Shown here: piece after piece, positions 391 through 60,437 of the stretch
Layout: each line of letters opens with the position of its first letter
Position numbering within the stretch: the first letter of the stretch is position 1
Virus record (IMG/VR): IMGVR_UViG_3300035698_013362
Location: 18,919-82,918 of that record
DNA from: a virus
Strand: one strand, 5' to 3'
Length of the DNA: 64,000 nucleotides
Position numbers and translations under genes: made by a program
The notes under the pieces: model-generated
Databases searched by the model: none
What the model saw: the letters and a program-made list of their open reading frames with translations, nothing else
What the model was told of the DNA's origin: nothing

Positions 391-1458
391 ATGACTGATC
401 AAGCTCGCCAGATTGAAACACAACTCGTTTATTGGAACGACGAATACCGCAAAGGTACTCCAGTCGTAAGTGATCCTGTTTTCGATTCACTCCTCGAACA
501 ATTTGAATCATTCGTTACTGTTGAAGAATACACCCGTGTTCGTGAATCCCTTTTTAATACTAAAGGTGACGTGAAACACCAATACATCATTGGTTCGTTG
601 AAGAAAACGAAAGCTGAAGATGATTCAATCCTCAAATGGATTGGTAAAGATAACGTAACTGAAGCATACATCGTTGAAAAGCTTGATGGAATGTCTATCG
701 TGTTACATTACGTAGACAGCGTTCTCGTTAAAGCCGTGTCACGTGGTGATGGTGAATATGGTAAGGACTATACAGAAAACCTCAAGCATATCGCTCCACT
801 TCGCCTTGACCTCAAATTCACAGGTCAGGTTCGTGCTGAAGTTGTGCTTCCAATTAGTGAACTTAAAAACATTAATGATATAGGCTTCACCTATAAGAAC
901 CCACGTAATGCTACGACTGGTCTCATTACTTCCAAATCAACCGAGGCGGATCTCCTTAAGCGCTGTAAAGTTATTGCTTACCAGATAATGGGATCAACTG
1001 AAAAGAAACCTACACAATACAGTGCGTTATATGATCTCGGTTTTACTCTTCCTAAACGTGAAACCTTCGATACACGCATTGATAATGTTACACCTAATTC
1101 ACTTAAAGCTATTTACGAAATCTGGACAGCTCAATCTGATTACGAAATCGATGGACTTGTTATCCACAACCTGAATTATGGTGATGAAAACATTAAACTC
1201 CCGACCCACACAATCGCTTTTAAAGTAAATGATCTCGTTGCAACAACAACCGTTCTCGACATCGAATGGGAAATGAGTCGTGGTAAAGAATATCGCCCAG
1301 TGGTTGTATTTAAAGCAATCGAGCTTGGTGGAGCTACAATCCAACGTGCTACTGGAAACAATCTACAATGGCTTATTGATCATAAACTTGAAATTGGATG
1401 TAGTGTTATTATAGAAAAAGCGGGTGATATTATTCCTCGGATTGTACAAGTTGTTTAG
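391..1458 (+). CDS. ligA: NAD-dependent DNA ligase, subunit A (adenylation and OB domains)
   Basis: N-terminal half of a bacterial-type NAD+ ligase, which seals nicks in replicating and recombining phage DNA. Residues 10-40 resemble the NMN-binding Ia region (WNDEYRKG..VSDPVFDSL). The adenylation motif is EKLDGMS with the nucleotide-accepting Lys near residue 97, followed by YKNPRNATTGLI and an OB fold ending in EKAGDIIPRIVQVV. The protein stops after the OB domain at 355 residues, whereas a full LigA is about 670. The zinc finger, HhH and BRCT parts are encoded by the next gene. Splitting of the NAD ligase into two subunits is known from T5-type phages; T4 itself uses an unrelated ATP ligase. 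An early promoter lies directly upstream. Confidence 0.93.
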   Translation: MTDQARQIETQLVYWNDEYRKGTPVVSDPVFDSLLEQFESFVTVEEYTRVRESLFNTKGDVKHQYIIGSLKKTKAEDDSILKWIGKDNVTEAYIVEKLDGMSIVLHYVDSVLVKAVSRGDGEYGKDYTENLKHIAPLRLDLKFTGQVRAEVVLPISELKNINDIGFTYKNPRNATTGLITSKSTEADLLKRCKVIAYQIMGSTEKKPTQYSALYDLGFTLPKRETFDTRIDNVTPNSLKAIYEIWTAQSDYEIDGLVIHNLNYGDENIKLPTHTIAFKVNDLVATTTVLDIEWEMSRGKEYRPVVVFKAIELGGATIQRATGNNLQWLIDHKLEIGCSVIIEKAGDIIPRIVQVV

Positions 1459-1566: not shown

Positions 1567-2388
1567 ATGTTTACTAAACTAAATTTAAATATCCCAATGT
1601 TTTGTTTTCATTGTAATCAACCAACTACAATGAAAGGTCCACACCTCGTATGTGCTAATGATGCTTGTACTGGAAACCAAATCAAGCAAATGAATACATT
1701 CCTTCGTGCTTGTGGAATTCAAGGTTTCTCTGAATCAACTTTGGAAAAATGGAAGCTTACTTCGATCGAAAAGGTAATGGCCTTCTACCCTAACACTCCT
1801 AATGAAAAGAAATTTCTTAATGAGCTATATGGTAATGTCTTCAACAAATCGAAACGTGATTTGATTATTGCTCTGCCATTCCATAACTTCGGTTCAACCC
1901 TTGTGACCCGTATGCTTGATACATATGGTAAGCAACGTATGGCTCATAACGATATCCTCGTAGATGGAATCAGTGCTGAACGTCAACGCAACTTCAAATC
2001 TCAGTTCGCTGAACTTGTGAAATGGGTTGAAGTTATTACTCATGACAATCGTTGGAAGCCCCAGGTCGCCGTTAGACAAAACACTTCACCTCTCAGCAAT
2101 AAACTATCAGGCCTCAGCTTTTGCTTTACAGGAAAGCTTACTACAATGACTCGTTCTGATGCTGAGAAATATGTTAAGTCTAATGGTGGTGAAGTCAAAT
2201 CGGTTTCAGCTAAGCTTACTTATCTTGTTACTAACAATCCTAACAGTGGTACCTCCAAGAACAAAAAAGCTCAGAACCTTGGTGTACAACTCATTACTGA
2301 AAAACAGTTTGGTGAATTACTCGGTAAGAAGATTGAAGATAAAAAGACTGAAGATAAATCAACACTTTTCGACATCAACGATCTATAA
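1567..2388 (+). CDS. ligB: NAD-dependent DNA ligase, subunit B (zinc finger, HhH, BRCT)
   Basis: C-terminal half of the NAD+ ligase, 273 residues. A four-cysteine zinc finger (Cys13, 16, 29, 34) is followed by a helix-hairpin-helix region (HNFGSTLVTRML resembles the LGI.HVG motif region) and a C-terminal BRCT domain from about residue 175 (LSGLSFCFTGKL, then KLTYLVTNNPNSGTSKNKKA). These modules bind DNA and complement the catalytic subunit upstream. The 108-base gap between the genes contains a promoter, and the BRCT domain is intact. The C-terminal tail is lysine and aspartate rich. The two proteins are presumably partners, as in T5. Confidence 0.9.
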   Translation: MFTKLNLNIPMFCFHCNQPTTMKGPHLVCANDACTGNQIKQMNTFLRACGIQGFSESTLEKWKLTSIEKVMAFYPNTPNEKKFLNELYGNVFNKSKRDLIIALPFHNFGSTLVTRMLDTYGKQRMAHNDILVDGISAERQRNFKSQFAELVKWVEVITHDNRWKPQVAVRQNTSPLSNKLSGLSFCFTGKLTTMTRSDAEKYVKSNGGEVKSVSAKLTYLVTNNPNSGTSKNKKAQNLGVQLITEKQFGELLGKKIEDKKTEDKSTLFDINDL

Positions 2389-29482: not shown

Positions 29483-30637
29483 TTAATTCGATTCACTAGT
29501 AATTCTAACCTTTTGATTACCCATTAAGTAATTAGCGTAAACGTTGAAACATGGAGGAGTAAGGTCACGTGCACTAATCGAAACTTTATAAGCATCAGGA
29601 TAAAGAGTATTTTCGTTTACCATTGGAACATCAGTGATTTTAGTGTACAATGGCATCTTACGAACATTACCTACGAACTCAATAGTCATATCAATAGCGA
29701 CGAATAACTGTATGAAGCGTCCTGGGCACTCAACTCTGAATACGTTTGGTGATTTAGTATATGCAAGAGAAAGGTTGCCTATAGAGGCTCCATCTGCTTT
29801 AGATTCAACATATTCTCCTACAGCATTTACAGCGTCTTCAATGTTTTCAGAGGCAGGTGAAGATCCTGTCATATGGACCCACTGTGTACTTGGGTATAAT
29901 GCATTAATAAAGGTAAAGTTCTTCTGTAAAGCTTCAAGGTCGTCATTAAGTAAAAAGAATTCAGTATCCCAACCTGGACCTTCAGAGTTATTGTTTGACC
30001 ATTGTGGTGATTTCATAATATTCATATTGAAACCATCATTCATCAATTCACCGAAACGTCCCGCTGAATCAATTGCATTACCCATTGTCCAACCATCTTT
30101 AGAGTTAGAGCTTAAGTAAGTGTTATTGTAAAAAGGGATTTCGTAAGTATTAACTACTTCACCTTCGATCAAGCCGTCAATAGCACTTATATCAAGAAGC
30201 TTATTTGATTCAGCAACAGAGGATGAATATTTGTCAGCAAGGTTATTCAAGTAAACTGATCCAGCAATCTGACTTCCTGTCTGGGCTACGGAAGTTGTTG
30301 CTCTTATAAATTTCTCTACTAGAGGTAGTTCACCTAAGGCGGTCATATCAGATAAGATTTTAGACCAATCTACTTTCTTCTTAGGTTGCTTTTCAACCAT
30401 GATTAGTTTAGGGATAGAATCATAATCAACTAATGAATCAGTTCCATTAATCTCATAGTTATCAGACCACTTATAATCTTTAAGGGTGAACGATCTTCTA
30501 TAAAGTGATCCGTTATAGGTAGTAGTTGTAATCCTTTTACCGTTTACTTTAATTGCCCCAACACTAGATACTTTAGCACCCCTAAAATTGATTGCTGCTC
30601 TTAAATCTTTCTTTGGTCCTAATTCATTATTTGCCAT
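29483..30637 (-). CDS. 48: Baseplate tail-tube cap protein (gp48-like)
   Basis: 384 residues from ATG 30637 (MANNELGPKKDLR), chosen because GGTGGGGAC lies just upstream; a GTG-type start at 30652 is less likely. T4 gp48 is 364 residues. The C-terminal half (FRVECPGRFIQLFVAIDMTI to YKVSISARDLTPPC) resembles the tube-like domain of gp48, which starts tail tube growth. Follows the tape measure with a short overlap, as in T4 (29-48-54). Confidence 0.65.
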   Translation of the reverse strand: MANNELGPKKDLRAAINFRGAKVSSVGAIKVNGKRITTTTYNGSLYRRSFTLKDYKWSDNYEINGTDSLVDYDSIPKLIMVEKQPKKKVDWSKILSDMTALGELPLVEKFIRATTSVAQTGSQIAGSVYLNNLADKYSSSVAESNKLLDISAIDGLIEGEVVNTYEIPFYNNTYLSSNSKDGWTMGNAIDSAGRFGELMNDGFNMNIMKSPQWSNNNSEGPGWDTEFFLLNDDLEALQKNFTFINALYPSTQWVHMTGSSPASENIEDAVNAVGEYVESKADGASIGNLSLAYTKSPNVFRVECPGRFIQLFVAIDMTIEFVGNVRKMPLYTKITDVPMVNENTLYPDAYKVSISARDLTPPCFNVYANYLMGNQKVRITSESN

Positions 30638-32435
30638 AGTTGTCCCCACCATCTAATCCACTATAATTAAAGGACTCATTATTTCTTGGAGTCATTATAA
30701 ATGTATTTAAGTCTTTTGGTTTGTTATCTTTTGTTGCAACAAGTATCTCTTGCAAGAATGGAACTAAAGCGTTATAACTATCTGTGCCGCCACCACTCAT
30801 TAATCTTTCACCTCTTGCTAACATTGCGTCAGTAGCTGCAGTTTCGAATATGTTAGGTAAAACAGAGGCATGTCGTTTCTTAACAGCCATTCTTCTTGCT
30901 GCAACTTCCTCCGCTTTTCTTTTAGCAGCTTCTCTTGAAGCTCGGGTATTCTGGATGTATTCCAGTTGATCAGCAAGCTTCTTATCCCAATACATATCTT
31001 GAATCTTGCCAATTCCATTAGCAATTTTATCAGAGATGTCAAATTTACTATCTAGATATTGTCCAATCTTATATCCGGCTACACCTGCACCTGCAATAAG
31101 GGTACCTTTAGCTAATACTTTAAGAATACCTGGGGCCGCTGTAGATACAGCATTAGCAATTCCTGTACCTACACCTGATCCCATTGCAGTACTTGCAAAA
31201 TTACTTCCCTTTCCAGATTTTACATTAGATCCCTTAGCGTGGAATAGAGAACCATCTGCTCCTCTCATTCCTCCTTCATTAAACATTTTCATAAGGATTT
31301 CATTACGATCCATGTCTAACTGGAACTGCTTATCTAATCTATTTTGTTGTTTATGCTGACTGAATTCATTACCTTTAGAATCACGTTTGATCGCATTAGC
31401 TTTCTGTTTTCCTGAACGAGCAATAGACTTAGCAATAGCTTTAGCGATTACTCCACCTGCTTCACCATCCTTGAATAAATTCTCAGGCATGATACGTTCT
31501 AATAGGTCTTCACCTTTAGAATCAAATGTAAGGCTTTTAATACCCTTATTGATCTTACCAAGCATTCGATGCTTAGCCATAGCAAATCGTAACATATAGA
31601 TTGGATCATTACCAACTGGGAATATGAATGAGTCAATAGGAACTTCAACTTTAGTTTGAAGAGGCTTCCATTTAGTAAGCTTAAATGACTTGTGAACAGG
31701 TCCAGGAGAAGGAGCTACAAAGGTGATGTTCTTAATACCTTTATTTACTTTAGTCAACATTCTGTGCTTGGCAAGATTATAACGTAAAGAGAAGAATTTA
31801 CTGTTCGTTGTTGGAAGAACAAATGAGTCAATAGGAACTTCAGCTTTAGTTTTTTCGATCTTAGTAAGTTTAAATGATTTGTGAGTTGGTGGAGTAACAA
31901 AGGTGATATTACTAATGCCCTTATTAACCTTAGACAAAAGTTTATGTTTTAGTAATCCATAACGAGCTGTATAAAATTTGCTGTTTGAAGTAGGGAACAA
32001 CATCGTTGATAATGGAAGTTCATGCATATCGGTGAACTTCATTAAACCTACACCTTGCTCAAGACGACCTAAGGCCATCTGCTTCACTTTGTTGTAACGC
32101 TTCATAAATTTAGCATTACGTGAAGTATCATCATCGAACATATCAAATAATGACACACGGTTACGACTTGCTACCATTAAGCCAACAAGTTTATTAACAC
32201 TTTCAAGGATTCGCAACTTACTTTTAGTGAATTTACGAGCAATCTTTTTATCTTCCTGTTCGGAAGTAGAAGGCATTAAAAGTTTATCTATGTCTAATTG
32301 GTACTCTACGACAGCTTTACGTGTAAGCTTTGCAACTTCACGATAAACCTTCTCGTACATTTTGCCCATTTTTTCATCGAACTCTTGCGTTGCAGGAGAA
32401 CGTGCTATTTGTCTGTTTTGAGAATCTAGAGCCAT
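30627..32435 (-). CDS. 29: Tape measure protein (gp29-like position) with three internal repeats
   Basis: 602 residues (T4 gp29: 590). Helical and basic. It contains three tandem repeats of roughly 62 residues, residues about 140-320: LPLSTMLFPTSNSKFYTARY, VPIDSFVLPTTNSKFFSLRY and VPIDSFIFPVGNDPIYMLRF, each followed by LxKHxMLxKxNKGIxxxTF. A Gly/Ala-rich membrane-like segment (LAKGTLIAGAGVAGYKIG) lies near residue 455, a usual feature of tape measures. Late AATAAATA at 32441-32448 is followed by five bases and the ATG. The upstream gene has a probable -1 frameshift, as is typical ahead of tape measures. Confidence 0.8.
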   Translation of the reverse strand: MALDSQNRQIARSPATQEFDEKMGKMYEKVYREVAKLTRKAVVEYQLDIDKLLMPSTSEQEDKKIARKFTKSKLRILESVNKLVGLMVASRNRVSLFDMFDDDTSRNAKFMKRYNKVKQMALGRLEQGVGLMKFTDMHELPLSTMLFPTSNSKFYTARYGLLKHKLLSKVNKGISNITFVTPPTHKSFKLTKIEKTKAEVPIDSFVLPTTNSKFFSLRYNLAKHRMLTKVNKGIKNITFVAPSPGPVHKSFKLTKWKPLQTKVEVPIDSFIFPVGNDPIYMLRFAMAKHRMLGKINKGIKSLTFDSKGEDLLERIMPENLFKDGEAGGVIAKAIAKSIARSGKQKANAIKRDSKGNEFSQHKQQNRLDKQFQLDMDRNEILMKMFNEGGMRGADGSLFHAKGSNVKSGKGSNFASTAMGSGVGTGIANAVSTAAPGILKVLAKGTLIAGAGVAGYKIGQYLDSKFDISDKIANGIGKIQDMYWDKKLADQLEYIQNTRASREAAKRKAEEVAARRMAVKKRHASVLPNIFETAATDAMLARGERLMSGGGTDSYNALVPFLQEILVATKDNKPKDLNTFIMTPRNNESFNYSGLDGGDNYGK

Positions 32436-32463: not shown

Positions 32464-32613
32464 TTAATCATACCATAGGCGTCTATATAGTTTCTTGACC
32501 CACCAACGGTATCTAGTAACTACCTGATTGGTTCTATCCTGCTTAACAACAAATGGATCCTCAAATCGAAGATCTAGATCACGTTTGAAGTCTTTAATGA
32601 TATTTTTATTCAT
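32464..32613 (-). CDS. Small basic protein between chaperone and tape measure
   Basis: 49 residues (MNKNIIKDFKRDLDLRFEDP to KKLYRRLWYD). ATG 32613 overlaps the stop of the frameshift extension (GATGAATAA), so its translation is probably coupled to ribosomes that shifted frame. Rich in Arg, Lys and aromatic residues. Position suggests a small tail assembly factor. Not recognised. Confidence 0.6.
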   Translation of the reverse strand: MNKNIIKDFKRDLDLRFEDPFVVKQDRTNQVVTRYRWWVKKLYRRLWYD

Positions 32614-32788
32614 CTGCAGCCTGGGCCTTTGCCTGTTTATTGATTATTGAACATTGAAGCTCAAAATCTAGGATGGATACATTACCTATATCAAATGGAT
32701 TGAATTTCATTTGCAGAGAAAAAGAGGCGATCATCTCAAGTATGTAGAAAAGTCGCCCTCGGTCTTCTTCTCTTATAACATAAAAAAA
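32606..32788 (-). CDS. -1 frameshift extension of the gp26-like chaperone
   Basis: The last codons of the upstream gene read GAT TTT TTT ATG TTA TAA. A -1 slip on the seven T (32782-32788) leaves the stop and opens 58 further codons: YVIREEDRGRLFYILEMIAS, then FSLQMKFNPFDIG to AKAQAADE, ending TAA 32606-32608. There is no start codon at the head of this frame, so frameshifting is the simplest route to it; an internal ATG (MIASFSL) exists without a ribosome site. The fusion would be 323 residues. Upstream-of-tape-measure position and short alpha-helical content match known G/GT or E/E' type extensions. Confidence 0.7.
   Translation of the reverse strand, partial: FFYVIREEDRGRLFYILEMIASFSLQMKFNPFDIGNVSILDFELQCSIINKQAKAQAADE
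32724..32788 (-). promoter_or_regulatory. Frameshift signal: slippery heptamer and H-type pseudoknot
   Basis: Heptamer T TTT TTT (32782-32788), spacer ATGTTATA (8 bases), stem 1 AGAGAAG (32767-32773) with CTTTTCT (32746-32752, one G-U pair), loop 1 AAGACC, stem 2 GAGGGCGA (32753-32760) with TCGCCTC (32724-32730, one bulged G), loop 3 of 15 bases. The two stems abut, so they could stack coaxially. Pairings were found by eye. Confidence 0.65.
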
Positions 32789-33576
32789 TCAGAGGTATCC
32801 ATGAATGTATTGATAGGCTCACCACAGTTAGGGCATGGAATATCGTAGAAGAATCTAGAGGTGATGAGGCCAATATCTTCAAAGAATGAAGCAAGTGATT
32901 CAATATTAGCAGAAATATTCTGAATGAACTCGATCTTTTCCATGAAGGCTTTATCAGCAAAGTCATCTACAAGTTCCCATTCGCCTTCTTCATTTTTGAA
33001 GGACATATCCTGGATACAGCAAATAACGTAGTCAATATATTTTTCGGCTGGAGTAACATCACGGGTCTGAGCAACACGTGAGTAATACATTTCAAGCATG
33101 ATCAAATCAAGTTGTCTTGGTAAGCCAAGTTTAACTTGCGCTGTGCCTGCTGTAGTTTCAAGCTCTTCTAATTTGAAGGTCTTATCAAATTCAGTAGCAG
33201 ATTCAATAAGTCGATCGAAGTCGACCTTCTCCTGGAATGCTTCGGTACACTTAGGACATTGGTAATTTACAATGAACTCATTGATGTAGTTCTCTTTACG
33301 TAGAGCACAACACAAAATGAAGAAATCACGAACATCGATTGATTCGAGTTCAACTGGAGAAAGAGAATTTGTTTCTACCAAGGCTATCTTGGCAAGGTCT
33401 GCTTCAGACGCAAAAACCATACGGTTATCATCAATAGCTAGCTTAGAAATAATCTTCTGATCATTTACACTAAGATGTTTGATACGTAGTTCTTTATCTA
33501 GAGAAGGTAGGTTAACAACGAAGTAGCCGGCGCCCTCTTTATTAGGGATGTTTTTTAGGATTTCAGATGTATTCAT
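32773..33576 (-). CDS. 26: Baseplate hub/tail assembly chaperone (gp26-like)
   Basis: 267 residues of the T4_baseplate (gp26) type: FVVNLPSLDKELRIKHLSVN, then FFILCCALRKENYINEFIV and two CxxC knuckles (CPKC near residue 109, CPNC near 252) that probably bind zinc. In the middle are PRQLDLIMLEMYY and YIDYVICCIQDM. It lies directly upstream of the tape measure, the slot of tail assembly chaperones. Its last codons form a slippery run, see the extension. T4 gp26 is shorter (208). Confidence 0.78.
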   Translation of the reverse strand: MNTSEILKNIPNKEGAGYFVVNLPSLDKELRIKHLSVNDQKIISKLAIDDNRMVFASEADLAKIALVETNSLSPVELESIDVRDFFILCCALRKENYINEFIVNYQCPKCTEAFQEKVDFDRLIESATEFDKTFKLEELETTAGTAQVKLGLPRQLDLIMLEMYYSRVAQTRDVTPAEKYIDYVICCIQDMSFKNEEGEWELVDDFADKAFMEKIEFIQNISANIESLASFFEDIGLITSRFFYDIPCPNCGEPINTFMDTSDFFML

Positions 33577-40096: not shown

Positions 40097-40793
40097 ATGC
40101 AGCTTGAATTTAAAACAATCGAAGAGATTAAATCAGCTTTCCTTGATTTCGATGTAGCAGAACAACCTACTTTTAAGAAATATGATGACAACGGTACATA
40201 TACTATATACCGCATGTGGTACAAGGAAGATACATATAACTGGCGCCGTGATTCATATAAAGTGAAAGATATGGTGTACTGGTTGCTTGTTTCAAACAAA
40301 ACTAATGCCGTCTTCACTCATAAAGATTCATTAAAACGAGCACGGATCTGGCTCGGTGTCCCTACTAAAAAGACCGTAGTAAAGCGCGAGATACGTTGTA
40401 AAGATACTAAAGTATGGGATAATCAGATTTGTGTTGATGGAAGCGCCAGCGGCGACAAGGCATGGTGTGGCATACGTTCTGTAGCAAACATTACACATGT
40501 TACTTACGCTGAAGCTCGCGACCTCTGTAAAGCATATGGTTGGACCAAACGAGGAATGTTCAATCATCAGATTAAGAAACTCTTTAAAGAAGAGGGATAC
40601 ACCGTAGAAGAAAAAAACCGAATCAGTCAGAGAACATGCTAAAACAATTAAAATGTTCGAACGACATGGTTTTGAAGGTAAATGGTTGATCCATGTGAAC
40701 GGTCATTTCGTAAGCTCTGTAAACGGTGTTGTGACGGATTGGTCTGCTGAAAGAAACCTTCGAATCATCAACGCCTGGCAGATTTCGAAATAA
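40097..40793 (+). pseudogene. Early protein, frameshifted at an A run
   Basis: The first frame runs from ATG 40097 to TAA 40640-40642 (181 residues). At the seven A (40611-40617) removing one base joins it to a frame that reads TESVREHAKTIKMFERHGFE, then WLIHVNGHFVSSVNGVV and stops at 40791-40793, for 231 residues. The 3' part is clearly protein-like and would otherwise be unexplained. The N-terminal part contains KDMVYWLLVSNKTNAVF and AWCGIRSVANITHVTYAEA, the latter resembling a cysteine-peptidase-type Cys motif, but I do not assign a function. Confidence 0.6.
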
Positions 40794-55284: not shown

Positions 55285-56214
55285 ATGAGTGAAGAACTAT
55301 GGGTTGATAAGTATCGACCAAAAACTGTAGAAAATATGTGCCTTAAGCCTGCTCTCCTTGAAAAATTTAAAGAGTGGCAAGAAAACCCTGAAAGGATGCC
55401 ACATATGACTTTGGCTGGTGTTCAAGGTACAGGCAAAACTACATTGGCCAGGATTCTAGCTGAAGCTGCATCTGAAGATATCCTTTATGTTCATTGTGGT
55501 AAAGAAGGTGGCGTAGATGATATTCGCACTAAGGTTGTTGAGTTCTGTAAAGCAATGTCTTTTGATGGACGCAATAAAACAGTAATCTTTGATGAAGCTG
55601 ATGGTCTATCTAAAAATGCTGGTAATGGTTCAAGCGCCCAGGATGCACTGCGAGGAATCATCGAGGAATCACAACACGACACTCGATTCATTCTTACATG
55701 TAACTACATCAATAAGCTTATTCCGGCCCTAGTATCGTCACGTTGTCGCCCTATCGATATCCGTTTCTCTGAATCTGATGTACTTAAGAAGTGTGTTGCT
55801 ATTCTTGATGCTGAAGAAATCAAATACACTAAAGAAACTATCATGGTATTCTATGAGCGTGTAATCCGTAAGAACTTCCCTGATATTCGAGGAATTATCA
55901 ACGTGTTATACCTTTGGGTTACTAATGGTGAATTGATAGAGCTTGATATTACTTCTGATTCTGAAGTAGGTGATTTCATTGATAAACTGATTGGTATTGT
56001 TAAGGCAGGAAACCTGAATAAGGCGCGCCAACTATGGCTAGATAATGAAGCATTATTCTGTTCATATGAAGAACTTTCAGGTGCCATGTTCAATAGTCTT
56101 GAAGATATCAAGCAACGTATGATCATTGGAAAATTTTTAAGAGAATTCCCTCATGTATTAGATAAAGAAATCCAATTTACTTGTTTAATAATGGAATTAT
56201 TTTTTAATAAGTAA
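55285..56214 (+). CDS. 44: Sliding clamp loader large subunit gp44
   Basis: 309 residues (T4 gp44: 319). Clamp-loader AAA+ motifs: LWVDKYRPKTVENM, Walker A GVQGTGKTTLAR, Walker B VIFDEADGL, the SRC motif VSSRCRPIDIRF, and FILTCNYINKL for sensor 1. Loads the gp45 clamp on primed DNA. AAAGGAATTTAT precedes the ATG. gp62 is not next to it; a homing endonuclease follows on the other strand. Confidence 0.95.
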   Translation: MSEELWVDKYRPKTVENMCLKPALLEKFKEWQENPERMPHMTLAGVQGTGKTTLARILAEAASEDILYVHCGKEGGVDDIRTKVVEFCKAMSFDGRNKTVIFDEADGLSKNAGNGSSAQDALRGIIEESQHDTRFILTCNYINKLIPALVSSRCRPIDIRFSESDVLKKCVAILDAEEIKYTKETIMVFYERVIRKNFPDIRGIINVLYLWVTNGELIELDITSDSEVGDFIDKLIGIVKAGNLNKARQLWLDNEALFCSYEELSGAMFNSLEDIKQRMIIGKFLREFPHVLDKEIQFTCLIMELFFNK

Positions 56215-57186
56215 TTTACAATTATTAAAATGCCATCTAGTCATATTACCACCTTTACCCTCTTTACCACAATGAGGGCAGGTGAGTAATTTTAATGTTC
56301 TAGGTTTAGATTCTTTTTTTCTATATATAAAAATCCTATTAGGATTTTTATCACAATACTCAAAATGATATACATACATTTTTACGCCCGCTCCTTTAGT
56401 ATTACACCATGGACATATACATTCTTTTTGATTAAATTTACGTCTTTCTTTTATTTTTAATAAAGATGCATTAGGATTATTAGGACAATAATTAAAGTGG
56501 TAACGATGCATCATAGAAGAAGTTCCTTTAGTATCACACCATGGACATATAATAATTTTATCTTCTCTTGGTTTTTTACCCTTTTTATTTGGGTTAAATT
56601 TACAATAATCAAAGTGAGCTATACTTCCATTAGGAACAAATTCATTACAATATGGGCATTTTACTAATTTATGTTTTTTACCTTTTTTGATATGCTGAAT
56701 CTCTCCAGTATTCCATCTTAGGTCATTAACTGAAACTTGAAAAATATTTCCATCTTTATCTATAGCAACAGATTTACCTTTGTTAATATGAATTAAATCA
56801 CCATTTAAATATCTTGGATCATTAATTGAAACTTGAAAAGTATTACCATTTTTATCATTTACAACAACTTTTCCAGTTGCCAAAGGTATTCCGGCTTTTT
56901 GCCAACCACCATATCCACCTAAATTTAAATTATATGTATTCTTTTGATTTATAAATTCTTGATTTACAATTATTTCTTCACAAAAATACATTGAATCAGA
57001 ATTTTTAAACCTATAAAGAATTTCTCTTGAAAAATTTTCTTTACCATATTTTCTTATTGCATCTTTAATGGCTTGACCTGATCCCATATATTCATCATTT
57101 AAATCATTAGTTTGATGAACACCAATATAAATCTTACCATTAATATTGTTTATACTTTTATACAAAAAATAGTAATATGTTTCCAT
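56197..57186 (-). CDS. GIY-YIG homing endonuclease with four zinc-finger-like repeats
   Basis: 329 residues from ATG 57186. Catalytic domain: YYYFLYKSINNINGKIYIG, the GSG turn (YMGSGQAIKDAIRKYGKENF), SREILYRF and the Glu-containing EEIIVNQEFI. Two NUMOD-like segments (GNTFQVSINDPRYLNG and GNIFQVSVNDLRWNTG) lie in the linker. Four CPxC...H...C units (CPYC, CPWC, CPWC, CPHC) at the C terminus probably contact the homing site. Late element GATAAATA is five bases before the ATG. Its 3' end overlaps gp44 by 18 bases, showing insertion beside a conserved replication gene. Confidence 0.93.
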   Translation of the reverse strand: METYYYFLYKSINNINGKIYIGVHQTNDLNDEYMGSGQAIKDAIRKYGKENFSREILYRFKNSDSMYFCEEIIVNQEFINQKNTYNLNLGGYGGWQKAGIPLATGKVVVNDKNGNTFQVSINDPRYLNGDLIHINKGKSVAIDKDGNIFQVSVNDLRWNTGEIQHIKKGKKHKLVKCPYCNEFVPNGSIAHFDYCKFNPNKKGKKPREDKIIICPWCDTKGTSSMMHRYHFNYCPNNPNASLLKIKERRKFNQKECICPWCNTKGAGVKMYVYHFEYCDKNPNRIFIYRKKESKPRTLKLLTCPHCGKEGKGGNMTRWHFNNCKLLIKK

Positions 57187-57191
57187 ATTAC

Positions 57192-57199
57192 TATTTATC
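57192..57199 (-). promoter_or_regulatory. Late promoter, leaderless class (homing endonuclease)
   Basis: Minus-strand GATAAATA, gap GTAAT, ATG 57186. Confidence 0.75.
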
Positions 57200-57236
57200 A
57201 AAATTTTGATTAGTTTTTGTAGTATGAATTACGACA

Positions 57237-59621: not shown

Positions 59622-60437
59622 TTATTTATTTAATGTTGTTCTGGTTTCTAACGGTGTAGATATTTTTATGTTATGCATCATTGCGATAGCATGAGACCTA
59701 TTTATTAGGCTTCTATTTGTTGCATATTCTCCCTTCTTCATATACAGATTATCTTCTAAACCTAATCTAATATTTCCACCCATGATCATTGCAGCGCTTG
59801 TCATAGGCAATTGATGTTTACCAACTGCTCCGCACGCCCACGGACCTGCAGGTAAGGAGTCAACTAAAGCAGAAAGATTTCGGATAGTTGGAGCAGTAGA
59901 GAACTTGGTTCCAAGTATTACATTTGTATAATATTTACCTATTAAATCGTTATCCACTAGATGGTGTAACATAGCAGACATATTCAAGTCGAATATCTCA
60001 ACTTCAGGCATAATTCCCTTTTCCTTCATCATAGCAGCTAGGTCCATTATCATTTTAGGATCATTAACTGAAGCTTGGGTAGGGAAGTTGATAGATCCAA
60101 GAGTTAAACTAGCTAAATCTGGTTTAGCTAATCCCCGTAACTCAAGAACCTGAGATCTTTGTTTGAATTCCTTGAAGGTTCTACCTGACGTAGATGCACA
60201 GATGAGCACAGAGGGATCATATGATCTAATACCTAATATAATATCTTCGTAGACAGACTTATCGTATGAGGCGCAACCCTGCTTATCCCTTGCGTGTACG
60301 TGGATAATTGATGCGCCGGCCTCTATGCAATTGACTGAACTCTGTATAATTTCAGCAACAGACATTGGAATGTATGGATTATCTTCCTTAGAAGATACCA
60401 TTCCTGTTACTGCTGCACATATTATTAACTTATCCAT
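59622..60437 (-). CDS. Beta-keto acid cleavage enzyme family protein (BKACE, Kce-like)
   Basis: 271 residues that follow the BKACE (DUF849) family over the whole length: AAVTGMVSSKEDNPYIPMS, then EAGASIIHVHARD with metal ligands His46 and His48, CASTSGR, PDLASLTLGSINFP, MPEVEIFD, WACGAVGKHQLP and GGNIRLGLEDN (Arg, and the Glu-Asp pair). Known members condense a beta-keto acid with acetyl-CoA to give acetoacetate and a new CoA ester. Glu14 of the 3-keto-5-aminohexanoate enzyme, which binds the substrate amine, is Val here, so the substrate probably differs. Overlaps the GNAT gene by eight bases within a late virion block. Not known to me in T4-like phages. Confidence 0.88.
   Translation of the reverse strand: MDKLIICAAVTGMVSSKEDNPYIPMSVAEIIQSSVNCIEAGASIIHVHARDKQGCASYDKSVYEDIILGIRSYDPSVLICASTSGRTFKEFKQRSQVLELRGLAKPDLASLTLGSINFPTQASVNDPKMIMDLAAMMKEKGIMPEVEIFDLNMSAMLHHLVDNDLIGKYYTNVILGTKFSTAPTIRNLSALVDSLPAGPWACGAVGKHQLPMTSAAMIMGGNIRLGLEDNLYMKKGEYATNRSLINRSHAIAMMHNIKISTPLETRTTLNK
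59623..59630 (-). promoter_or_regulatory. Late promoter, leaderless class
   Basis: Minus-strand AATAAATA, gap AGTAT, ATG 59617; lies at the end of the BKACE gene. Confidence 0.75.

What the first reader, a model, noticed from the sequence alone, without database searches (positions are those of the whole stretch)
32606..33576. Programmed -1 frameshift with an H-type pseudoknot in the gp26-like gene just upstream of the tape measure
Seen: the gene ends GAT TTT TTT ATG TTA TAA; seven T permit a -1 slip (T TTT TTT). The -1 frame is open for 58 codons, has no start codon at its head, reads like protein, and its stop overlaps the ATG of the next gene. Eight bases after the heptamer, two abutting stems fit an H-type pseudoknot (AGAGAAG with CTTTTCT; GAGGGCGA with TCGCCTC). 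Established: many long-tailed phages make a tail assembly chaperone and a frameshifted longer form (lambda G/GT, P2 E/E') from the gene before the tape measure; I know of no such case described for T4-type gp26. Inference: this gp26 relative is the counterpart of G/GT, which would unify T4-type and lambda/P2-type tail assembly.
Basis: partly seen in the sequence, partly recalled or inferred. Interest (0 to 1): 0.9.

Follow-up and report, generated by a model that had tools for sequence, protein, structure and literature searches.

The report
Frameshifted tail-assembly chaperone gene (gp26)
A T4-type phage gene next to the presumed tail-length gene carries a slippery run of seven T's that should let some ribosomes slip back one base and make a longer tail-assembly chaperone; this is real and conserved in principle across the gene family, but it is a new example of a kind already reported for T4-like phages rather than a new unifying principle.

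Summary
The gp26-like gene (minus strand, 33576-32773; PF12322 E=2e-6) ends GAT TTT TTT ATG TTA TAA. A canonical T_TTT_TTT heptamer (32788-32782) lies in the only short overlap between its frame and a -1 frame that stays open for 58 codons (to 32606). That frame has coding-like codon usage. It is the only one of 36 in-frame heptamers in the window with an open frame of that length behind it.

Relatives support it. All 80 cyanophage-type gp26 loci carry T_TTT_TTC before the stop (one breaks off just after the T run), with a conserved -1 frame behind it. In 51 distinct relatives of another group the extension lies in the +1 frame, behind invariant TTY-YTT-TGG-CCT. T4 has lost the slippery site; its gp51 is a gp26 paralogue already fused to the extension.

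Two parts of the interpretation change. The favoured RNA is a nested stem-loop 8 nt downstream, not an H-type pseudoknot. The link between gp26 and G/GT is not new: later papers credit Vladimirov et al. 2022 with T4-like tail assembly chaperones, including poly-T frameshift signals.

The short/long chaperone pair is a strong inference; no product was measured. Possibly new: one family uses both -1 and +1 shifts at one Phe-Phe motif.

The parts
32773..33576 (-). gp26-like tail assembly chaperone, short form (267 aa), with two Cys-x-x-Cys motifs
   Evidence: PF12322 E=2e-6, over the curated cut-off; phrog_150 'baseplate hub' E=5.9e-8; the only PF12322 match in the 82.9-kb record
32782..32788 (-). 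slippery heptamer T_TTT_TTT (codons GAT TTT TTT ATG)
   Evidence: sequence; only in-frame heptamer of 36 with a long open -1 frame behind it
32606..32782 (-). -1 frame extension, 58 codons plus stop (YVIREEDRGRLFYILEMIASFSLQMKFNPFDIGNVSILDFELQCSIINKQAKAQAADE); together with the first 265 residues gives a 323-residue long form
   Evidence: weak match to the family's extension profile (4.5 bits; 14 of 2000 shuffles and 3 of 482 window pieces score as high)
32773..32775 (-). zero-frame stop TAA of the short form, 6 nt after the heptamer
   Evidence: sequence
32715..32773 (-). predicted stimulatory stem-loop, 8 nt after the heptamer: outer 11-bp stem 32773-32763 with 32725-32715, with inner pairing
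   Evidence: MFE -22.6 kcal/mol, z -3.16, 0 of 200 shuffles as stable; synonymous-recoding p=0.027
32464..32613 (-). small 49-aa ORF whose ATG overlaps the stop of the extension; status unknown
   Evidence: ORF list
30627..32435 (-). 602-aa ORF in the position of the tape measure protein; identity inferred from position and size only
   Evidence: no Pfam hit at a meaningful E-value and one weak PHROG hit; homologous gp26 loci are followed by the tape measure gene

Best explanation
[quoted passage not shown] Most ribosomes stop at TAA 32773 and make the 267-aa gp26. A minority slip back one base on T_TTT_TTT: tRNA-Phe in the P and A sites re-pair with TTT TTT, helped by a stem-loop 8 nt downstream. 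These read 58 more codons into a 323-aa long form whose C-terminal piece would contact the tape measure protein, as lambda GT does. The short and long forms would coat or solubilise the tape measure protein while the tail tube polymerises, and are not expected in the virion. Shown here: family membership, heptamer, open coding-like frame, RNA fold prediction, and the conserved frameshift architecture in relatives. Inferred: that slippage occurs, its rate, and the chaperone role.
For: Family: PF12322 and phrog_150. Site and frame. RNA stem-loop. Relatives, -1 type: 80 of 80 IMG/VR cyanophage-type loci have T_TTT_TTC at the end of gp26 (one breaks off right after the T run); in the other 79 the -1 frame is open, about 60 codons where the contig is long enough. 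The base before TTT TTC is always T although the codon is AGT, TCT, GCT, GAT or AAT, and in the -1 frame the third codon position varies most (0.36/0.27/0.52). S-RIM50, S-H34, Atu_ph07, XacN1 and PA5oct are alike. Relatives, +1 type: 51 of 51 distinct loci have an open +1 frame (56-78 codons) behind TTY-YTT-TGG-CCT; three contain no ATG, GTG or TTG in the extension. T4: gp51 matches PF12322 (3.9e-52) and its C-terminus matches phrog_634 (1.2e-23), the family hit by the cyanophage -1 extensions (7e-30); gp26 and gp51 are paralogues (E=2e-6); T4 gp26 ends GAG TTC TTT GAG, with no slippery run.
Against: No product or slippage was measured. No close relative of this phage was found, so the heptamer and stem-loop could not be tested for conservation in its own lineage. 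The extension matches the family's extensions only weakly. TTT TTT also encodes the family's conserved Phe-Phe, which explains six of the seven T's without any slippage. The cyanophage set shows no conserved downstream structure. The 602-aa neighbour is a tape measure protein by position only. No PDB structure matches the gp26 fold significantly; HK97 gp13 appears only at E about 2.
Confidence: 0.9

Rival explanations
1. The small frame is an independent gene started at its own ATG (32734, 42 aa) or by re-initiation after the gp26 stop, and no fusion is made.
For: An in-frame ATG exists at codon 17 of the extension. Databases annotate the cyanophage counterpart as a separate 'gp51' gene.
Against: The residues before any possible start are conserved as protein in relatives. 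One of 56 cyanophage loci lacks the annotated Met, and 3 of 51 loci of the +1 group have no ATG/GTG/TTG at all in the extension. The slippery run is invariant. T4 carries the two parts fused as gp51. I saw no good ribosome-binding site before 32734.
Confidence: 0.05
2. A one-base homopolymer error in the T7 run of this metagenomic assembly splits what is really one continuous 323-aa gene, like T4 gp51.
For: Homopolymers are error-prone, and another ORF of this window looks broken at an A7 run near 40610-40616.
Against: The split falls at the same Phe-Phe motif where relatives, including cultured phages, are split by frame. The zero frame ends 6 nt later, close to where the cyanophage one does. 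No second PF12322 gene is present in the record to supply a short form.
Confidence: 0.03
3. Chance: the T run only encodes Phe-Phe and the open -1 frame means nothing.
For: Phe-Phe is a conserved end motif of the family. Stop-free off-frame stretches of 58 codons occur at 1.5%.
Against: The extension has coding-like codon usage, the overlap of the two frames is only 13 nt and holds a canonical heptamer, and homologues show the same layout with selection on the extension.
Confidence: 0.02

Closest known systems
T4-like tail assembly chaperones: T4 gp26/gp51 and cyanophage gp26 plus 'gp51' (Vladimirov, Gautam & Davidson 2022, known here only through PMC10274946 and PMC12846349)
   Same: Same protein family (PF12322/phrog_150), same short plus long layout; the cyanophages have a T-run -1 site directly before the stop.
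   Different: T4 itself makes the two forms from two genes and has lost the slippery run. The window's protein is only about 15-22% identical to these, its heptamer is T_TTT_TTT rather than T_TTT_TTC, and it has a predicted stem-loop that the cyanophage set lacks.
Vandenendeviridae/Andersonviridae tail assembly chaperones (Pseudomonas phage Adele, PMC12846349)
   Different: Motif GTTTTT; relation to PF12322 not tested here.
Lambda G/GT
   Same: Short form plus frameshifted long form made upstream of the tape measure gene (own knowledge; Xu et al. 2004).
   Different: No sequence relation found; the lambda slip site is GGGAAAG (own knowledge).
P2 E/E'
   Same: -1 frameshift chaperone pair in a contractile-tailed phage, at a T-run site (own knowledge), close in kind to the site here.
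   Different: Different protein family by sequence; no Pfam GpE match to the extension.

Membership tests
T4 gp26 family (PF12322) | Profile match over the curated cut-off and over most of the profile | tested here: met
   28.1 bits against a cut-off of 24.5, profile positions 5-218 of 219
T4 gp26 family (PF12322) | Ends with the Phe-Phe motif at the C-terminus | tested here: met
   ...TSDFFML; F264 and F265 invariant in a 24-row alignment
Programmed -1 frameshift | Canonical X_XXY_YYZ heptamer in the zero frame, within the overlap of the two frames | tested here: met
   T_TTT_TTT at 32788-32782 in a 13-nt overlap
Programmed -1 frameshift | Downstream stimulatory RNA structure at 5-9 nt | tested here: met
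   stem-loop at 8 nt, z -3.2, p 0.027 against synonymous recoding; prediction only
   stems S1 and S2 sum to about -10.5 kcal/mol before pseudoknot penalties, against -22.6 for the nested fold
Programmed -1 frameshift | Trans-frame product made at a set rate | not testable with these tools
   needs mass spectrometry, ribosome profiling or a reporter
Tail assembly chaperone (G/GT type) | Two proteins sharing an N-terminus, the long one through a frame change, conserved in relatives | tested here: met
   80/80 and 51/51 loci plus cultured phages; sequence evidence only
Tail assembly chaperone (G/GT type) | Gene lies directly upstream of the tape measure gene | tested here: inconclusive
   602-aa ORF in the right place but without a family match; relatives SP-15 and LIS04 have a putative tail protein / annotated tape measure protein there
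Tail assembly chaperone (G/GT type) | Chaperone fold (HK97 gp13, PDB 2OB9) | tested here: inconclusive
   good family model (pLDDT 85.6); no PDB hit at E<=0.001, but 2OB9_A, 2OB9_B and 3FGX_A are among 72 weak hits; the model of the window's own protein is poor
Tail assembly chaperone (G/GT type) | Needed for tail assembly and absent from the virion | not testable with these tools
   needs a knock-out and virion proteomics

The most novel reading that the evidence does not exclude
The gp26-type chaperone family solves one problem three ways at one Phe-Phe codon pair: -1 slippage at T_TTT_TTY (this window, cyanophages, several jumbo phages); +1 slippage at an invariant TTY-YTT-TGG-CCT site (a large group of mostly environmental T4-type phages, including cultured Microcystis phage Mel-JY01) or at other +1 sites (Bacillus, Listeria, Streptococcus and Streptomyces phages); and gene duplication plus fusion in T4. 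The direction of a programmed frameshift would have switched within one gene family while the product stayed the same, and TTY-YTT-TGG-CCT would be an undescribed +1 recoding signal.
Probability: 0.5. Interest if true: 0.6.

Novelty: new member of a known kind. Interest (0 to 1): 0.42.

Why it matters
It corrects an annotation error that recurs in these genomes (the small ORF called 'gp51' or 'hypothetical protein' is the C-terminal part of a chaperone) and adds a very divergent lineage to the frameshifted T4-type tail assembly chaperones. The comparison around it gives a natural experiment: one protein family that makes its short and long forms by -1 slippage, by +1 slippage, or by a duplicated fused gene. 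That makes it testable whether the short-to-long ratio, rather than the mechanism, is what selection holds constant.

Tried and rejected
- Close relatives of this phage: single-protein scans of IMG/VR with gp26, the gp27-like and the neck protein found none. A 15-sequence gp26 alignment was too diverse to scan with. tblastn in the phage collection gave only weak hits to SP-15 and one uncultured phage.
- Pairwise BLASTP of the window extension with the SP-15 extension: nothing; with GXN1: E 0.002 for a single comparison, register unclear.
- Structure of the window's own gp26 with 23 cyanophage relatives: pLDDT 60, no usable PDB match.
- Conserved RNA structure downstream of the cyanophage site: none predicted.
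- Pseudoknot: both stems exist but lose to the nested fold.
- Literature: the key 2022 Virology paper is not held; what it says is taken from papers that cite it.

Full report
What is there. The finding is on the minus strand. The ORF 33576-32773 encodes 267 residues and ends GAT TTT TTT ATG TTA TAA. It matches the T4 gp26 family PF12322 (E=2e-6, over the cut-off, nearly the whole profile) and phrog_150 (5.9e-8), and it is the only PF12322 match in the 82.9-kb virus record that holds the window. In the -1 frame a TGA immediately precedes the T run; from there the frame is open for 58 codons after the heptamer, to the stop at 32606. The two frames overlap for only 13 nt, and that overlap contains the slip site of the canonical heptamer T_TTT_TTT (32788-32782). 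A tandem slip would give a 323-residue protein. The stop of the extension overlaps the ATG of a 49-aa ORF, followed by a 602-aa ORF in the place of the tape measure gene; that identity is by position only, since it has no useful family match.

Is it more than chance? In 70 ORFs of the window there are 36 in-frame X_XXY_YYZ heptamers. This is the only one whose -1 frame runs more than 15 codons past the stop (it runs 55). Only 1.5% of 58-codon off-frame stretches inside genes are stop-free. The codon log-likelihood of the extension is +5.9; 0.1% of off-frame pieces reach this and 5.9% of true gene pieces are as low. So the extension looks coding, in the lower range of real genes.

RNA. The 82 nt after the heptamer fold into a nested stem-loop whose outer 11-bp stem begins 8 nt after the heptamer (-22.6 kcal/mol, z -3.2, none of 200 shuffles as stable; p 0.027 against synonymous recoding of the extension). 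The cyanophage relatives show no conserved structure at all, so the structure may be specific to this lineage or not needed.

Relatives. No close relative of the phage was found, so the argument rests on the family. gp26 homologues of thirteen phages found with the window's or the SP-15 protein, together with the T4 region, were read. In twelve of the thirteen the gene is followed by an alternative frame that opens inside gp26 and runs 60-90 codons past its stop; most are then followed by a large tail gene. The thirteenth, LR756511, has a longer zero-frame ORF; its off-frame was not interpreted and it was left out of the alignments. The frame is -1 in S-RIM50, S-H34, Atu_ph07, XacN1 and PA5oct, and +1 in SP-15, LIS04, GXN1, Mel-JY01, LR756508, BRock and LuckySocke.

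The -1 group in depth. Eighty IMG/VR loci related to S-RIM50 gp26 all carry the T run at the same spot (T_TTT_TTC; one contig breaks off right after the T run), and the other 79 have an open -1 frame behind it, about 60 codons where the contig is long enough. In 56 distinct loci the heptamer starts exactly 10 nt before the stop, the preceding codon is AGT, TCT, GCT, GAT or AAT, always ending in T, and in the stretch before the annotated start codon the third position of the -1 frame is the most variable (0.36/0.27/0.52). One locus lacks the annotated start Met. This is what a translated trans-frame protein predicts and what a separate gene does not.

The +1 group. A scan with the window's small gp53-like protein brought in 80 loci, of which 64 contained a gp26 homologue (51 distinct). 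In all 51 the +1 frame is open for 56-78 codons past the stop, and the zero frame reads TTT TTT TGG CCT (32), TTT CTT TGG CCT (18) or TTC TTT TGG CCT (1). Three of the 51 contain no ATG, GTG or TTG in the extension and six no ATG; third positions again vary most (0.37/0.23/0.51). A P-site YTT codon can re-pair +1 with TTT while the single-codon Trp TGG waits in the A site; the resemblance to the CTT-TGA site of release factor 2 is from own knowledge. On a gp26 tree the two directions need one or two changes, the window is a very long branch, and T4 gp26 and gp51 group together beside the cyanophages.

T4. T4 gp51 matches PF12322 (3.9e-52) and phrog_150 to its end, and its C-terminal 100 residues match phrog_634, the family hit by the cyanophage -1 extensions. 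gp26 and gp51 are paralogues (E=2e-6). T4 gp26 keeps Phe-Phe but writes it TTC TTT after GAG, so the slippery run is gone. T4 therefore supplies the short and long forms from two genes.

What is known. The PRFect paper (PMC10274946) says that some T4-like phages carry a short and a fused longer chaperone gene instead of frameshifting, citing Vladimirov, Gautam & Davidson 2022 (Virology 566:9-15, not held). A December 2025 paper on phage Adele (PMC12846349) describes a -1 frameshift in the chaperone genes of Vandenendeviridae and Andersonviridae and cites the same 2022 paper for poly-T -1 signals in TAC-N genes of T4-like phages. So identifying gp26 with tail assembly chaperones, and the T-run frameshift, are prior art. 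I found no description of the +1 group in the papers held, but could not read the key paper, so I do not claim it as new.

Fold. The window's own gp26 modelled poorly (pLDDT 60). The S-RIM50-type protein with a 63-sequence alignment modelled well (pLDDT 85.6, pTM 0.78). No PDB entry matches at E<=0.001, though three chains of known chaperones (HK97 gp13, 2OB9 A and B; 3FGX, named a tail assembly chaperone in PMC9603447) appear among 72 weak hits out of 350,542 chains. This is suggestive only.

Weak points. The window extension matches the profile of the family's extensions only weakly (hhalign P 0.037; better than 99.3% of its own shuffles and of other window pieces). Phe-Phe is a conserved protein motif, so six of the seven T's have another reason to be there. 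Nothing here measures slippage. An assembly error in the T run is unlikely but not excluded.

Verdict. The frameshift is very probably real; the pseudoknot is not supported; the claimed unification had already been made. The finding is a new, very divergent member of a known kind, with an interesting wider pattern of direction switching around it.

Noticed in passing
L096-L175 (51 distinct gp26 loci) and L007 3150-3431: gp26-type genes of a large group of T4-type phages end with invariant zero-frame TTY-YTT-TGG-CCT and a +1 extension of 56-78 codons: a probable +1 programmed frameshift in a family whose other members use -1.
   Followed up: partly
L015 3803-5229 (T4 genes 26 and 51): T4 gp51 is a paralogue of gp26 that already contains the C-terminal extension; T4 gp26 has lost the slippery T run.
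   Followed up: yes
window 40097-40793: A 181-aa ORF is interrupted at an A7 run (near 40610-40616); the reading frame continues as ...KTESVREHAKTIKMFERHGFEGKWLIHVNGHFVSSVNGVVTDW... in another frame. Either a homopolymer error or a second recoding site; no Pfam match to the 181-aa and 46-aa ORFs as listed.
   Followed up: partly
window 59622-60437 (-): A phage-borne BKACE family enzyme (beta-keto acid cleavage enzyme, PF05853, E=4.9e-76): an unusual possible auxiliary metabolic gene.
   Followed up: partly
window 391-1458 and 1567-2388 (+): NAD-dependent DNA ligase appears split into two ORFs: adenylation plus OB domains in the first, a BRCT domain in the second.
   Followed up: partly
window 56197-57201 (-): SegE-like GIY-YIG homing endonuclease (PF19835, E=3e-6) with several zinc-ribbon repeats, overlapping the end of the clamp-loader-like gene.
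   Followed up: no
window 31600-32100 (-), inside the 602-aa ORF: The presumed tape measure protein contains about three copies of a roughly 70-residue repeat (LP...FPTSNSKFYTARYGLLKHKLLSKVNKGISNITFV...).
   Followed up: no
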